From: Flavobacteriales bacterium
GTDB lineage: Bacteria; Bacteroidota; Bacteroidia; Flavobacteriales_D; Sanyastnellaceae
Reading direction: 5' to 3'
Assembly (NCBI GenBank): GCA_020437755.1
Contig: JAGQVX010000002.1
Span: 1-64,000, forward strand
DNA: 64,000 nucleotides
Shown: positions 16,856-39,413 of the stretch, one piece after another
How positions within the stretch are numbered: the first letter of the stretch is position 1
How the letters are laid out: the number at the start of each line of letters is the position of its first letter
Made by a program: the position numbers and the translations under genes
Notes under the pieces: model-generated
Databases searched by the model: none
Told to the model about the DNA's origin: nothing
The model's input: the letters and a program-made list of their open reading frames with translations, nothing else

Positions 16856-17545
16856 ATGGCTGTTATTGAAATTAAAGACGTAAAGAAGATCTACTATCCG
16901 GGATCCGAAATTCAGGTAAACGCCCTCAGCGGAGTCAACCTGACCATTGAAGAGGGCGAATTCACGGCCATTGTTGGTCCGTCGGGTTCGGGTAAGACTA
17001 CACTCCTCAATATTGTAGGCGGACTGGACACCTCTTCTTCCGGAAGCGTGAATATTGATCAGACCGACATTACCCGGCTCCCGGAGAACAAGCTGATTGA
17101 TTTTCGGCTTCACCACATCGGCTTTGTATTCCAGGCTTACAACCTCATTCCGGTGCTGACGGCCAAAGAAAATGTGGGCTTTATCATGCTGCTCCAGAAA
17201 CGGCCGGAACAGGAACGCAATGATCGCGTTACGGCCTTGCTGGAGGAGGTGGGACTGTCGGATAAGATGGACAAGAGACCCAACGAGTTGAGTGGTGGTC
17301 AGCAACAGCGTGTGGCGGTGGCCCGGGCGTTGGCTTCGAAGCCCCGTTTCGTTCTGGCCGATGAGCCCACTGCAAACCTGGATTCTCGCTCCACAGGCGA
17401 TTTGCTTGATATAATGCTTCGATTGAATCAGGAAGAGGGCACAACGTTTATATTCTCAACCCACGATCAGCGCGTCATTGACCGTGCGCGGCGCGTGGTA
17501 ACGCTGGAAGATGGAAAGATTGTTTCGGATGTCCGCCAGGGCTAG
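16856..17545 (+). CDS. ABC transporter ATP-binding protein, LolD/MacB type
   Basis: The 229-residue ATPase drives the two FtsX permeases. Walker A is GPSGSGKTT (about residues 42-50), the Q-loop is in FVFQAYNLIPVLTAKENV, the signature is LSGGQQQRVAVARALA, Walker B is FVLADEPTANLD and the H-loop is STHD. The IPVLTAKENV stretch after the Q-loop is typical of the LolD/MacB/FtsE branch. An alternative ATG at 16851 is out of frame. The end overlaps the following beta-barrel gene. Confidence 0.93.
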   Translation: MAVIEIKDVKKIYYPGSEIQVNALSGVNLTIEEGEFTAIVGPSGSGKTTLLNIVGGLDTSSSGSVNIDQTDITRLPENKLIDFRLHHIGFVFQAYNLIPVLTAKENVGFIMLLQKRPEQERNDRVTALLEEVGLSDKMDKRPNELSGGQQQRVAVARALASKPRFVLADEPTANLDSRSTGDLLDIMLRLNQEEGTTFIFSTHDQRVIDRARRVVTLEDGKIVSDVRQG

Positions 17546-18707
17546 CCATTTGGCTTTATGCCTCTTTATGAGCACTATGCTGGCACAAGGCCAAATGGAC
17601 AGCTCAACCACCTGGATCAGCGAGCACTTCTCGGTTCAGGGCTATGTGAAATACCTCACTACAGCCTCCTTTTCGAATGCCGATGACCTGCTAACGCACC
17701 AGTTTTTTCACAACCGGATCAATTTTAAATATTACGCCACTCCATCTATTACGCTGGTCGTTGAAAACCGAAACCGCGTGTTTTTTGGAGAAACCGTAAA
17801 GCTCACGCCCGACTACGGAGCACTGGTTGATCAATCAACCGGAACCGTCGATCTATCATGGTTGTGGATGGCCGAAAAGAGTATTGTGGGCCATAGCACC
17901 CTCGACCGGGCTTATGTGCAATATTCCAAAGGAGATTGGGACGTTAGTGTGGGCCGTCAACGTATAAACTGGGGTATTAATGTGGCCTGGAACCCCAACG
18001 ACCTGTTCAATGCGTATAATTTGGTCGATTTCGACTATCAGGAACGTCCGGGCTCGGATGCTGTCCGGGTGCGTCATTACATGGGCCGCCATGCAATAGA
18101 AGTAGCCGCCGCTCCCGATACCGCACTGAATACCAGCGTGATTGGTTTGTTGTACAAAGTGAATGTGCTGAACTACGATCTTCAGTTCCTGGCTGCCAAT
18201 TATCGTCTCGACTATGCCGTAGGTGGAGGTTGGGCGGGAAACCTAAAAAATGCCGGATTCAAAGGAGAAGCCACCTACTTCATACCCAAAACCACCTCGA
18301 ACGGATCGAAGGAAGCTTTTGCCGGCAGCTTATCTGTTGACTACCTGTTTAGAAAAGGACTGTACATCAATGTATCCGGGCTCTATAACAGCATCGGTGA
18401 ACGGAGTCTGACTGCCCAATCGCTGGCTTTTCAATCGGGAGCTCCATTATCGGCAAAGAACCTCATGCCGTCCCGATTTACTTCGTTTATCCAACTGAGT
18501 GGAGCGTTTACACCTGCTTTTTCAGGTGCACTTTCGGCCATTTACCTGCATGAAATGGACATCTCCTTCCTCATGCCATCGGTGGCGTACAACATCAACA
18601 ACAGTTGGGATATTGACCTCACCGGACAGCTCTACTTTGGTGATGCGGGGAATGGTTATCGAAATTTGGGAAATGCTTTGTTCTTGAGGGTGCGGTTGAG
18701 CTATTGA
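17529..18707 (+). CDS. Outer-membrane beta-barrel protein, terminal gene of the ABC export operon
   Basis: The 392-residue product begins MSARASHLALCLFMSTMLAQG, a signal peptide. An ATG 18 bp upstream gives six more residues, and one at 17568 would shorten the signal; 17529 is preferred. The body alternates short hydrophobic and polar stretches with many aromatic residues and ends GNALFLRVRLSY with a terminal aromatic, as beta-barrels do. The segment YVQYSKGDWDVSVGRQRINWGINVAWNPNDLFNAYN recalls DUF1302/porin-like proteins that sit with LolA-like proteins and MMPL pumps. It probably is the outer-membrane partner of the ABC system. The family assignment is tentative. Confidence 0.75.
   Translation: MSARASHLALCLFMSTMLAQGQMDSSTTWISEHFSVQGYVKYLTTASFSNADDLLTHQFFHNRINFKYYATPSITLVVENRNRVFFGETVKLTPDYGALVDQSTGTVDLSWLWMAEKSIVGHSTLDRAYVQYSKGDWDVSVGRQRINWGINVAWNPNDLFNAYNLVDFDYQERPGSDAVRVRHYMGRHAIEVAAAPDTALNTSVIGLLYKVNVLNYDLQFLAANYRLDYAVGGGWAGNLKNAGFKGEATYFIPKTTSNGSKEAFAGSLSVDYLFRKGLYINVSGLYNSIGERSLTAQSLAFQSGAPLSAKNLMPSRFTSFIQLSGAFTPAFSGALSAIYLHEMDISFLMPSVAYNINNSWDIDLTGQLYFGDAGNGYRNLGNALFLRVRLSY
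17547..17562 (+). repeat. TTTAT-loop variant of the dispersed hairpin repeat, copy 1
   Basis: CATTTGGCTTTATGCC keeps ATTT plus GGC..GCC but has a five-base TTTAT loop instead of GNAT. The same 16 bases recur inverted at 23897. Confidence 0.6.
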
Positions 18708-18799
18708 TATGAATTCTATAGCGTTTTCCAGATCAGGAAACTGATGCTACCCTTCCTCAATACACCCGCTTCAGGGTGCCCCGGAAATTCATCCTAACT

Positions 18800-18887
18800 T
18801 ATCGGAAGTATATCGGAAGTTTATTCGCATTTTATCCGCATTTTATCGGAAGTATATTCGCATTTTATCGGAAGTTTAATCGATTTT
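18800..18887. repeat. Eight tandem 11-bp units upstream of fic
   Basis: Eight contiguous 11-bp units precede the fic start by 36 bp. They are of two kinds: A = TATCGGAAGTW (units 1, 2, 5, 7) and B = TATYCGCATTT (units 3, 4, 6); unit 8, TAATCGATTTT, is degenerate. The order is A A B B A B A and the end unit. An 11-bp period puts equal bases on about the same face of the helix, suiting a protein array or a slippage-prone promoter. Confidence 0.85.
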
Positions 18888-18923
18888 TAATACATTTGAA
18901 TAACTGGTAATCAACTGTATACC

Positions 18924-20012
18924 ATGCCATTTAACCCGAAATTCATCATCTCACCGGCGTTGACATTGACTCTATTGGAAATTGAGGAGTCACGAACTAC
19001 CATTGCCAACCTCCCCATTACCATAAAGGTGTTGGAATCATTGCGTGAGTCGGCCAGACTGATGTCAACCCACTATTCGACGCAAATAGAAGGAAATAGA
19101 CTTACTCAAGAACAAGTGAATGTGGTTCTGAAAGGCGGAACTTTTCCGAATCGACACCGCGATGAAATCGAAGTTCGTGACTACTATTTGGCGTTAGATT
19201 TTGCTGAAGAATTGATTAACAAAGGCATTCCTAGCATCAGTGAAGAAGAGATTCAGACTATCCACGGTTTAGTGATGAATGGTAAAAGAAAAGCCACGCC
19301 ATATCGGGATGGCCAAAACGTAATACGAGATAGTTCATCTGGTGCAATAATATACCTTCCTCCCGAAGCCTCTGATGTTCCGGTTCTGATGTCTGAGCTC
19401 ATTGCCTGGGTTAATGAACAAGCTGAATCTACCCAGCTACCCATTCCAATAATAGCCGCTATCGCTCACTATCAGTTTGCGACGATTCATCCCTATTACG
19501 ATGGAAATGGTCGCACAGCCAGACTGCTTACTTCCATTATCCTTCACAAGTCCGGATATGGACTAAAAGGTATATTTTCATTGGAGGAATACTATGCAGA
19601 CAATCTTCAAGCCTACTATAAAGCTCTCACGGTTGGTGATTCTCATAACTACTATTTCGGAAGAGAGAATGCGGATATCACACAATGGGTTGAATACTTC
19701 TGCATTGGGCTTTCCGACGCCTTCGCCAAAGTTCGACATACGGCGTCCATTCAAATAGGACATGAAACACAGGCAGTAGATCAAACCGCGATCTTGAGGG
19801 AGCTTGATCTAAGGCAAAAGAAAATCCTCTCATTATTTCGTGCCCATAAGTACGTCACCACAAGCATGATTGCTTCCAAACTAGGAATTCAACCACGTGC
19901 AGCGCTCAACTTGTGCAACGAATGGATAACCTCAGGATTCATCCAGCGACATGGAAACGCCAAAAAGAACCGCAACTATTCATTGTCAGAAAAGTGGGAA
20001 TCTATACTCTAG
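18924..20012 (+). CDS. Fic family protein (predicted AMP transferase) with C-terminal winged helix
   Basis: Fic enzymes transfer AMP (or another nucleotide moiety) to hydroxyl side chains. The active-site motif is HPYYDGNGRTAR with catalytic His189. The N-terminal inhibitory motif (S/T)xxxE(G/N) is present as STQIEG (Ser52-Gly57), so this is a class II, self-inhibited Fic protein. About 90 C-terminal residues (DLRQKKILSLFRAHKYVTTSMIASKLGIQPRAALNLCNEW) form a winged helix-turn-helix, which suggests DNA binding and perhaps autoregulation through the 11-bp array upstream. It stands alone, convergent with the next gene. Confidence 0.92.
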   Translation: MPFNPKFIISPALTLTLLEIEESRTTIANLPITIKVLESLRESARLMSTHYSTQIEGNRLTQEQVNVVLKGGTFPNRHRDEIEVRDYYLALDFAEELINKGIPSISEEEIQTIHGLVMNGKRKATPYRDGQNVIRDSSSGAIIYLPPEASDVPVLMSELIAWVNEQAESTQLPIPIIAAIAHYQFATIHPYYDGNGRTARLLTSIILHKSGYGLKGIFSLEEYYADNLQAYYKALTVGDSHNYYFGRENADITQWVEYFCIGLSDAFAKVRHTASIQIGHETQAVDQTAILRELDLRQKKILSLFRAHKYVTTSMIASKLGIQPRAALNLCNEWITSGFIQRHGNAKKNRNYSLSEKWESIL

Positions 20013-20015
20013 CTC

Positions 20016-21986
20016 CTACTTCACCACACTCAACCTACTCGTACCGGCTGAGCATACAACCGTGTAAACACCTTCGGTAAGTGACGTAATGTCCAAAACC
20101 ATGCGCGATTGATCTGATTGTGTTGTAAGTACTTCACGGCCGCTGAGGTCGTAGATATAGATGTCTCCCAGTGCCTTGCGCGACTTCAATTCAATGGAAT
20201 CAGAAGCCGGATTAGGATATACCACAAACAAGTTAGAGGCTTGTTCTTCAGCAATATCCGTAATCAACACCTGAAACGAAAACGGACCGCCTTCAGAAGA
20301 AGTGCCACATTCATTGGTTGAGCTTACTTTCCAGAAATAGGTTCCGTTGGTGGCGCTGTCCCAGGTGAATGCGTTGGTAGCTACCACTTCGTCTACAACA
20401 ATTGTCGTGAACATAATGTCAGAAGCCACCAGTAAGTGATATTCCGTGGCATCAGCGTCTGCAGCCCAGGCAAAGTCAACGCTTTCCAAGCCCACCACTG
20501 AGATGTCGGCAGGTTCATTCAATACCGGTGTTGCCGGCACACCGCCTTCTTTAACGAGGAATCCCTTGGTTTTAAATTCCGAAGTTTCCGTAGTCACGAT
20601 GTAATTAAAGTCATACTCACCATTGGAAAGCGCACTCAATCCGGTGAAGGTAATCGTGGTATTTCCGGGAGCTGTAAATGAATCTGCATTGGTCACCACA
20701 CCTGGCAATCCTTCCACAGTCACGCTTAACGTACCTTCAAATTCAACTTCAGTGGCAAACGTAACCGTCACTTCATCAACCGTACAGCCCACTTCAATTT
20801 GAGCCGGGTTGGTTTTGAACAATACAGGCTTCAACACGAAGAATCCATCGTACATGTCAGTCAACACAACCGTCCCACTCTCAAACCAGGCATAGTTACT
20901 CCAACTCCCCGAAAATTGAGGCAAATCGTTATCCGGAAGCACATCGAAGAATGCAATCTCGTACATGTTGTTGTTGGCCATATCTCCTCCATCAAGCATG
21001 CGCAATCCCGAGCGGTAGTTGGCTTCATATACCACGTCACCAATAACATATAAGTTGTGGTCAATAGAGGTATTGTCGCTTAGGTAGTACCCCACCAAAA
21101 CCGGATTATCAATGTCCTGAACATCAAAAATAAACGTACGTGTATTGAACCCCTGCTGCATCTCATCCAACTCGTCATTGGCAAGGAAATACTTGTGGTC
21201 TTCGGTAAGCCATCCCTGGTGGGTATAGGCCGGATTGTCGTACACACAGTGACTAATCAGCTGACAATCGGTTTTAACGGTCACGTCAATAATGGCAATA
21301 TTGTCCTCATTGCATGCAAAGGCCAGTTCCTTCCCTGCATAGTCTGAGTCAGGTCCCATGTAGTTCACAATGTGGGCATCATGCGTGTACCCATCTTCGG
21401 AGAATCCACCAGCAATGGCGGGTGTAAGCGGATTGTTGATGTCGATGATTTCCAGTCCTCCCGAGAAATTGTCGTTTCCTACCGCGTAGGCGAATCCGGA
21501 TTCTTCATTAATGCAAATATTGTGAGCACCACCGAATCCGTCGTAATGTCCGTCGATTTCAAAAGTTACCGGTGGATTGGTCACGTCAAGCAACTTGGTG
21601 AGGTCAAAAACCTGCATACCGTGGTCATCAGCTTCTGAAACAATATACGCGTAGTGCTGATACGTTTTAATATCGCGCCACAGCGAGTTGAAGGATTGGG
21701 TAGGAAGAGTTCCCAAATACACAGGATCCGTTGGATTGGTAATCTCCACGAAAGCCGTTCCTGTGCTCTTACCCACAAGGGCAAATTCACGTCCACTTTC
21801 CGAATCCGTCCATCCCCAAATATCATTGGTATTATTTCCTCCGCCAATTTCATTCAGCGTCATATATGCCTGAAGATCAACATGGCTGCATGGGTATTCG
21901 CCTGCAAATCCACCTTCACATGGAACTTGTGAAAATCCGGCAATTCCGGTCAATACACCGGCTATTATGAGTATCGATTTCTTCAT
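20016..21986 (-). CDS. Choice-of-anchor B family secreted protein with T9SS tail (long copy)
   Basis: The 656-residue product starts MKKSILIIAGVLTGIAGFSQ, a signal peptide. Residues 20-400 form the choice-of-anchor B domain, a propeller of LVIVD-type repeats (DIWGWTDSESGREFALVGKSTGTAFVEITNPTDPVYLG, then AHNICINEESGFAYAVG and YTHDAHIVNYMGPDSDYAGKELAFACNED). An Fn3-like or Ig-like region of ~170 residues follows, then a type A T9SS tail (VYPNPASDSIELKS..IYDLSGREVLTT..LTEGVYTV). It follows its shorter paralogue by 8 bp in the same operon. The function of these propellers is not known. Confidence 0.88.
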   Translation of the reverse strand: MKKSILIIAGVLTGIAGFSQVPCEGGFAGEYPCSHVDLQAYMTLNEIGGGNNTNDIWGWTDSESGREFALVGKSTGTAFVEITNPTDPVYLGTLPTQSFNSLWRDIKTYQHYAYIVSEADDHGMQVFDLTKLLDVTNPPVTFEIDGHYDGFGGAHNICINEESGFAYAVGNDNFSGGLEIIDINNPLTPAIAGGFSEDGYTHDAHIVNYMGPDSDYAGKELAFACNEDNIAIIDVTVKTDCQLISHCVYDNPAYTHQGWLTEDHKYFLANDELDEMQQGFNTRTFIFDVQDIDNPVLVGYYLSDNTSIDHNLYVIGDVVYEANYRSGLRMLDGGDMANNNMYEIAFFDVLPDNDLPQFSGSWSNYAWFESGTVVLTDMYDGFFVLKPVLFKTNPAQIEVGCTVDEVTVTFATEVEFEGTLSVTVEGLPGVVTNADSFTAPGNTTITFTGLSALSNGEYDFNYIVTTETSEFKTKGFLVKEGGVPATPVLNEPADISVVGLESVDFAWAADADATEYHLLVASDIMFTTIVVDEVVATNAFTWDSATNGTYFWKVSSTNECGTSSEGGPFSFQVLITDIAEEQASNLFVVYPNPASDSIELKSRKALGDIYIYDLSGREVLTTQSDQSRMVLDITSLTEGVYTVVCSAGTSRLSVVK

Positions 21987-39151: not shown

Positions 39152-39171
39152 AGACGCGATTCATCGCGTCT
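39152..39171. repeat. Isolated GACGCGA palindrome
   Basis: AGACGCGATTCATCGCGTCT folds into an 8-bp stem with a TTCA loop. It is related to the palindrome at the end of each following 96-bp unit and to palindromes of this kind scattered in many bacterial genomes. Confidence 0.75.
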
Positions 39172-39186
39172 CCCATCTGAAGCCTT

Positions 39187-39365
39187 GACCGATTCTCCAA
39201 AAAGAGACCTGATGATTCAAGAATGGATAGACGTTGAATCACCCTTGAGGACGCGAGTATCGCGTCCCCTCTCAGAAGGAATGACCGATTTTCCAAAAAA
39301 TGACCTGATGACTCAAGAATGGATAGACGTTGATTCACCCTTGAGGACGCGAGTATCGCGTCCCC
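39187..39365. repeat. Two tandem ~83-bp copies (96-bp period) ending in GGACGCGA hairpins
   Basis: Copy 1 (39187-39269) and copy 2 (39283-39365) are nearly identical, both starting GACCGATTYTCCAAAAA and ending with GGACGCGAGTATCGCGTCC, an 8-bp stem with a GTA loop (39249-39267 and 39345-39363). Together with the single palindrome at 39152 they fill the 380-bp gap between the glycosyltransferase and the S46 peptidase. No coding frame runs through. Neither copy has target-site duplications that I can see. Confidence 0.8.
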
Positions 39366-39413
39366 CCCCTTTTTTGAAGGCCTTCATCGTTCCTCAAAAA
39401 AATCGACTTTATC

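What the first reader, a model, noticed from the sequence alone, without database searches (positions are those of the whole stretch)
18800..18924. Eight 11-bp tandem units of two types directly before a Fic gene
Units TATCGGAAGTW and TATYCGCATTT alternate irregularly with a strict 11-bp period, ending 36 bp before the fic start. A helical-turn period suggests cooperative binding, perhaps by the winged-helix domain of the Fic protein itself; alternatively copy-number slippage could switch the gene on and off. An array of this kind before a toxin-like enzyme suggests tight control.
Basis: partly seen in the sequence, partly recalled or inferred. Interest (0 to 1): 0.7.

Follow-up and report, generated by a model that had tools for sequence, protein, structure and literature searches.

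The report
Operator array of a DNA-binding Fic enzyme
A row of 11-base repeats in front of a Fic (AMP-transferring enzyme) gene is most likely the docking site for that enzyme's own DNA-binding tail, and similar rows lie beside many genes in bacteria and archaea whose proteins carry the same kind of tail.

Summary
The array is real. Seven strict 11-bp units (TTATYSGMAKT) lie at 18799-18875, with two decaying units in register to 18897. It occurs once in the genome and far exceeds shuffles. It abuts a Bacteroidota-type -7 box (TACATTTG) ahead of a class II Fic gene with a C-terminal winged helix (wHTH).

A scan of about 85,000 genomes for three such units found related arrays across bacteria and archaea. 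Sixteen abut a Fic homologue. They sit either before the gene or in frame at its 3' end, starting at the Leu codon that closes the wHTH. A second, unrelated enzyme family (SLFN_AlbA_2/HATPase_c_4) has the same arrays at its 3' end; the wHTH is what profile comparison aligns (E 8.8e-7). Loci with TTATC[CG]G units have this wHTH nearby in 20 of 28 cases, against 3 of 70 with other units. Genes chosen by protein alone show 10-12-bp arrays far above control gene ends, with lineage-specific units.

Best reading: an autogenous operator, bound head-to-tail by the Fic wHTH and probably repressing. Binding and its sign are inferred (precedents: CccR, BldC, RptR). Slippage switching is unsupported. The 3'-end arrays are unexplained, and are the most novel part.

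The parts
18799..18875 (+). Array of seven strict 11-bp direct repeats, consensus TTATYSGMAKT
18876..18886 (+). Degenerate eighth unit TTAATCGATTT, in register
18887..18897 (+). Degenerate ninth unit TTAATACATTT, in register, overlapping the putative -7 box
18891..18898 (+). Putative Bacteroidota -7 promoter box TACATTTG (TAnnTTTG), the only match in the intergenic region; no TTTG -33 box, the array lies there
   Evidence: the consensus is from general knowledge of Bacteroidota promoters
18924..20012 (+). fic gene, 362 aa, class II Fic protein with C-terminal winged helix
19077..19094 (+). Inhibitory motif STQIEG (residues 52-57), N-terminal to the Fic core
19488..19523 (+). Catalytic Fic motif HPYYDGNGRTAR (residues 189-200)
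19809..19985 (+). C-terminal winged helix (residues 296-354; recognition helix about 324-337, IQPRAALNLCNEWI) proposed to bind the array
   Evidence: AF2 model; homology to the AlbA_2-family winged helix

Best explanation
The array is the autogenous operator of the Fic protein. Fic molecules dock their C-terminal winged helix on successive 11-bp units, one per helical turn, and line up head to tail on one face of the DNA. Because the array covers the -33 region and runs into the -7 box, the bound protein shuts off or throttles fic transcription. Each lineage has its own unit sequence, which coevolves with the recognition helix. Shown: the array, its place, the Fic and wHTH domains, and its recurrence beside wHTH-Fic genes and beside a second enzyme family with a homologous wHTH. 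Inferred: physical binding, cooperativity and repression.
For: Array unique and non-random. In 16 loci of a genome-wide pattern scan a Fic homologue abuts the array. The nearest homologue (65%) has the same unit, TTATTGGAAGT/TTATCCGAAGT. 5' arrays sit at core promoters: 5-6 bp before TATAAT in L031, L058, L097, L123; over TATAAT in Devosia L230. The same units lie at the 3' end of SLFN_AlbA_2/HATPase_c_4 genes, whose wHTH is homologous to that of Fic (E 8.8e-7 and 7.7e-10). wHTH nearby in 20 of 28 loci with TTATC[CG]G units against 3 of 70 with other units; with an HMM from Fic proteins only and Fic loci excluded, 7 of 24 against 2 of 71. Protein-chosen genes: 6 of 18 wHTH-Fic 5' ends and 9 of 39 HATPase_c_4 3' ends carry 9-13-bp repeats, against about 1 of 319 control ends. 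Unit similarity follows recognition-helix similarity within Fic (r 0.66, p 0.0002). Precedent: CccR, a class II Fic with C-terminal HTH, represses its own promoter (PMC9755527).
Against: No binding data. About half of the array-bearing Fic loci have the array at the 3' end, where promoter occlusion of the own gene cannot work. Most protein-chosen wHTH-Fic genes (12 of 18) show no detectable 5' array. Cross-family helix-unit covariation is weak (p 0.10). TAATYGG 10-bp arrays in 38 viral stretches have no detectable Fic or AlbA neighbour. CccR uses an inverted repeat, not a direct-repeat array.
Confidence: 0.66

Rival explanations
1. The array is bound by the Fic wHTH, but its main role is to activate transcription, or to hold the enzyme on DNA and switch its activity (AMPylation versus deAMPylation), not to repress the promoter.
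For: 3'-end and in-frame arrays cannot occlude their own promoter. No recognisable -33/-35 box where the array lies, which fits an activator site. In CbFic2, a class II Fic with DeoR-type wHTH, DNA binding switches catalysis and the cognate sequence is unknown (PMC10628234).
Against: The characterised autogenous case, CccR, is a repressor (PMC9755527). 5' arrays overlap -10 or -35 elements, the usual repressor position.
Confidence: 0.2
2. The array is an operator for a different regulator, not for the Fic protein itself.
For: Direct-repeat operators of separate regulators exist, for example BldC (PMC5859096) and RptR, the latter autogenous (PMC12255303). Similar 11-bp arrays lie beside NrtR regulators (L038), and 10-bp TAATYGG arrays occur in phages without Fic.
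Against: The unit follows the homologous wHTH into two unrelated enzyme families and into archaea. In the window genome the array occurs only here. The fic gene stands without a neighbouring regulator gene.
Confidence: 0.07
3. Copy-number slippage in the array switches fic on and off (phase variation).
For: Tandem arrays can slip, and this one touches the core promoter.
Against: Neighbouring units are diverged. Four related 5' arrays keep about four units, and L031 and L123 share the unit order. The array is outside any reading frame in the window.
Confidence: 0.03
4. The array is a non-functional or mobile-element repeat, or a recombination footprint carried along with an acquired fic gene.
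For: Fic is absent from the other 113 genomes searched in the family, so the locus is probably acquired. Multi-copy 11-bp arrays of other units do disperse in some genomes.
Against: Conserved unit core, strict helical period, association with a specific wHTH and with core promoters; single copy in this genome.
Confidence: 0.04

Closest known systems
CccR of Yersinia pseudotuberculosis (PMC9755527)
   Same: Class II Fic protein with a C-terminal HTH domain that binds its own promoter and represses it.
   Different: Operator is two inverted 10-bp repeats (AGATAATCAT-N26-ATGATAATCT), bound as a dimer; here up to nine direct 11-bp repeats. Secreted effector; no sign of secretion was examined here.
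CbFic2 of Coxiella burnetii (PMC10628234)
   Same: Class II Fic core with a C-terminal two-stranded winged helix of the DeoR type; structural hit of the model (8cil).
   Different: Has an N-terminal DUF4172 domain, not found by Pfam in the window protein. Its DNA effect is on catalysis and its cognate DNA is unknown.
BldC of Streptomyces (PMC5859096)
   Same: wHTH protein that polymerises head to tail on direct repeats of varying number, about one helical turn each.
   Different: MerR-like wHTH, 9-bp units, no enzyme domain, many target promoters.
RptR repressor of a phage-defence island (PMC12255303)
   Same: Autorepressor on three short direct repeats overlapping its own promoter.
   Different: 9-bp units with palindromic core TAGCTA; small dedicated repressor of a restriction-modification island.
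SLFN_AlbA_2 / HATPase_c_4 proteins with C-terminal wHTH (Pfam PF04326, PF13749)
   Same: Homologous winged helix and the same 11-bp unit arrays, found here at their 3' ends.
   Different: Unrelated N-terminal domains; array orientation is mostly reversed relative to the gene; no experimental function for the arrays found.

Membership tests
Class II Fic proteins | Fic core with HPFx[D/E]GN[G/K]R-type motif | tested here: met
   HPYYDGNGRTAR, PF02661 E 6.6e-20
Class II Fic proteins | Inhibitory [S/T]xxxE[G/N] helix N-terminal to the Fic core | tested here: met
   STQIEG, invariant in the alignment except at the variable positions
Class II Fic proteins | AMPylation activity relieved by loss of the inhibitory Glu | not testable with these tools
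   needs an enzyme assay
CccR-like autoregulatory Fic | C-terminal HTH or winged-helix domain | tested here: met
   AF2 model; profile homology
CccR-like autoregulatory Fic | Repeat operator in own promoter | tested here: met
   array 18799-18897 directly before fic; protein binding itself not tested
CccR-like autoregulatory Fic | Inverted-repeat (dyad) operator layout | tested here: not met
   direct repeats; self-complementarity of units is at most 6 of 11
CccR-like autoregulatory Fic | Protein binds and represses its promoter | not testable with these tools
   needs EMSA and reporter
Phase-variable promoter (slipping tandem repeat) | Near-identical units and copy number varying between close relatives | tested here: inconclusive
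   units diverged; about four units in four related loci; no strains or reads of this species available
BldC-type direct-repeat operators | Head-to-tail oligomer of a MerR-like wHTH on direct repeats | not tested
   spacing is similar, but the wHTH here matches no MerR family; oligomerisation cannot be tested here

The most novel reading that the evidence does not exclude
The arrays are cognate allosteric DNA for a class of DNA-tethered enzymes (wHTH-Fic and AlbA_2/HATPase_c_4). Binding to the own gene's array, before it or embedded in frame in its last codons, stores and switches the enzyme's catalytic state as well as tuning expression, so one portable wHTH-plus-array module has been built into unrelated enzymes across bacteria and archaea.
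Probability: 0.2. Interest if true: 0.82.

Novelty: new variant of a known kind. Interest (0 to 1): 0.62.

Why it matters
Two Fic proteins with a DNA-binding tail were found in the literature searched. One (CccR) controls itself through an inverted repeat; for the other (CbFic2), DNA changes its enzyme activity but its cognate DNA is unknown. The arrays give a list of candidate cognate sequences for a wide family of such enzymes, so whether specific DNA sets their amount or activity can be tested directly. That the same unit follows the same winged helix into an unrelated enzyme family, and sits in the last codons of the gene in many loci, is unexpected; I found no description of it in the papers searched.

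Tried and rejected
RNA element: no Rfam match in 17000-21000. Mobile or phage context: no close Fic relative with a single-sequence query in viral contigs and no exact three-unit arrays there with the strict pattern. Sister-species empty site: the flanking genes lie on different contigs in G028, so no clean empty site. Arrays as a general trait of all Fic genes: rejected; other Bacteroidota Fic genes gave 5 of 52 at the 5' end, four of them one homologous group, and 0 of 52 at the 3' end. Own-genome paralogue L295 has no array at its 3' end (its 5' end is cut by the contig). Prediction that 10-bp TAATYGG arrays in viral contigs mark Fic genes: failed, 0 of 38. Cross-family helix-unit covariation: weak, p 0.10. 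Published use of the unit sequences: the hits shown were unrelated papers, most likely primer sequences. The first ORF scripts used rough or wrong frames and were replaced. Searching other phyla by protein with the genome search was not possible.

Full report
Observation. The intergenic region 18708-18923, between a gene of unassigned family (17511-18707, no Pfam hit) and fic, holds seven strict 11-bp head-to-tail units (18799-18875) and two degenerate ones in register up to 18897. The lag-11 score of 35 compares with a maximum of 15 in 1000 dinucleotide shuffles, and the next best tile of the window scores 12. The pattern is unique in the draft genome.

Gene. The downstream ORF 18924-20012 is a class II Fic protein: PF02661, catalytic HPYYDGNGRTAR, inhibitory STQIEG. 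An AF2 model (pLDDT 84.5) shows a canonical C-terminal winged helix (H296-307, H313-320, H324-337, two strands). The best Foldseek hits are bacterial Fic structures including 4rgl, SoFic and CbFic2. The gene is absent from the other 113 genomes searched in the family. Only one close Bacteroidota relative was found, a defective gene (L014, with an in-frame TAG and a shortened N-terminal part) without an array. So the locus is probably acquired.

Do the units recur? An exact three-unit scan with TATNSGNANT over about 85,000 genomes gave 102 stretches. tblastn of the window Fic protein found 16 with an abutting Fic homologue: 15 at 44-65% identity (L088 is cut by the locus edge) and one gene fragment at a contig edge (L072), whose array matches in the opposite orientation. 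In about half, the array is just before the start codon: L068, L070, L031, L058, L069, L097, L123, L072. In L031, L058, L097 and L123 it ends 5-6 bp before a TATAAT. In the other half (L110, L120, L057, L092, L113, L102, L124, L088, and also L070) it lies at the 3' end, in frame, beginning at the Leu codon of the wHTH's terminal YxL and encoding sequences such as LSAIYRQFIGN. The 65%-identical homologue L068 carries TTATCCGAAGT TTATTGGAAGT TTATTGGAAGT.

A second family. Among the other array loci, proteins of about 440-460 aa (SLFN_AlbA_2 + HATPase_c_4 + C-terminal wHTH) have TTATCSGMAAT-type arrays at or next to their stop codon, in bacteria and archaea. Profile comparison of the Fic and AlbA alignments aligns just the wHTH (E 8.8e-7; 7.7e-10 for the C-termini alone). 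Of 28 loci whose three units all fit TATC[CG]G[AC]A[AG]T, 20 have this wHTH within 1.3 kb; of 70 loci with other units, 3 (Fisher p 1e-11). The HMM was partly built from these loci, so I repeated the test with an HMM made only from Fic proteins on loci without Fic: 7 of 24 against 2 of 71.

Test on genes chosen by protein, not by array. Homologues came from viral contigs, plasmids and phages and from Pfam and profile searches in Bacteroidota genomes. Period 9-13 repeats with score 11 or more were found 5' of 6 of 18 wHTH-Fic genes and 3' of 9 of 39 HATPase_c_4 genes. They were found in 5 of 52 (5') and 0 of 52 (3') other Bacteroidota Fic genes, and in about 1 of 319 control gene ends, once control hits that are the target gene's own array or lie inside the target gene are removed by hand. 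Control lags of 14-18 gave few hits. Units differ by lineage: TTATCGGCGGT (L140, both ends), TAATCGGGTA (Devosia), TAATTGGTTT (Stanieria), TTTACGACA (L142), ATTGGGCAATG (HATPase_c_4 gene, also on a Rhodothermus plasmid), and others. Unit similarity follows recognition-helix similarity within Fic (r 0.66, p 0.0002) and overall (p 0.001), but only weakly across families (p 0.10) (entries picked by hand, and relatedness of the sequences is not removed). Most genes in these sets lack a detectable array, so the trait is frequent but not universal.

Mechanism. The simplest reading is an autogenous operator read by the Fic wHTH, one protein per turn, covering -33/-35 or -10 and therefore repressing. 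CccR, a class II Fic with a C-terminal HTH, works this way with a different operator layout (PMC9755527). Head-to-tail or serial binding to direct repeats has precedents in BldC (PMC5859096) and RptR (PMC12255303). Binding, cooperativity and sign are not shown here. The absence of a recognisable -33/-35 box also allows activation. The 3'-end arrays cannot act by promoter occlusion on their own gene; together with CbFic2, whose catalysis is switched by DNA of unknown sequence (PMC10628234), they keep open that the array is an allosteric or depot site.

Slippage. Units within the array differ. Four related 5' arrays each keep about four units, and L031 and L123 share the unit order. The array is outside any frame in the window. 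This speaks against a slippage switch, but strain data would be needed to exclude it.

Negative and cautionary results. TAATYGG 10-bp arrays in 38 viral stretches have no detectable Fic or AlbA neighbours, so the core alone does not predict the protein. The sister genome does not give an empty site. Literature searches found no description of these arrays, but most subscription papers and preprints are not held.

Verdict.

Noticed in passing
L029, L032, L035, L039, L043, L054, L079, L083, L084, L093 (Chitinophaga ginsengisegetis), L096 (Chitinophaga sp. SYP-B3965): Many dispersed arrays of about ten 11-bp GTATGGGGAGT-like units per genome, with a similar unit order from copy to copy; no link to Fic seen.
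   Followed up: no
L226, L227, L243, L261, L263, L264: 12-bp tandem DNA repeats near or inside HATPase_c_4 genes; probably in-frame tetrapeptide linkers before the wHTH, which I did not check frame by frame.
   Followed up: partly
L038:7464-7495: TTATACGAATT 11-bp array between an NrtR-type regulator (NUDIX + NrtR_WHD) and the next gene; L099 has a similar array with a regulator-like C-terminus 200 bp away.
   Followed up: no
L338-L375: 10-bp TAATYGG arrays in 38 stretches of viral contigs, often just before a start codon, without Fic or AlbA neighbours.
   Followed up: partly
window 39153-39366: A 96-bp tandem repeat of 2.2 copies, 87% alike.
   Followed up: no
G000 C46, C14, C241, C233 (L295-L298): The same genome holds four further Fic genes; L295 ends in a related-looking wHTH but shows no array at its 3' end.
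   Followed up: partly
L014: The only other close Bacteroidota relative of this Fic is a defective gene, lacking much of its N-terminal part and carrying an in-frame TAG; intact homologues exist elsewhere.
   Followed up: no
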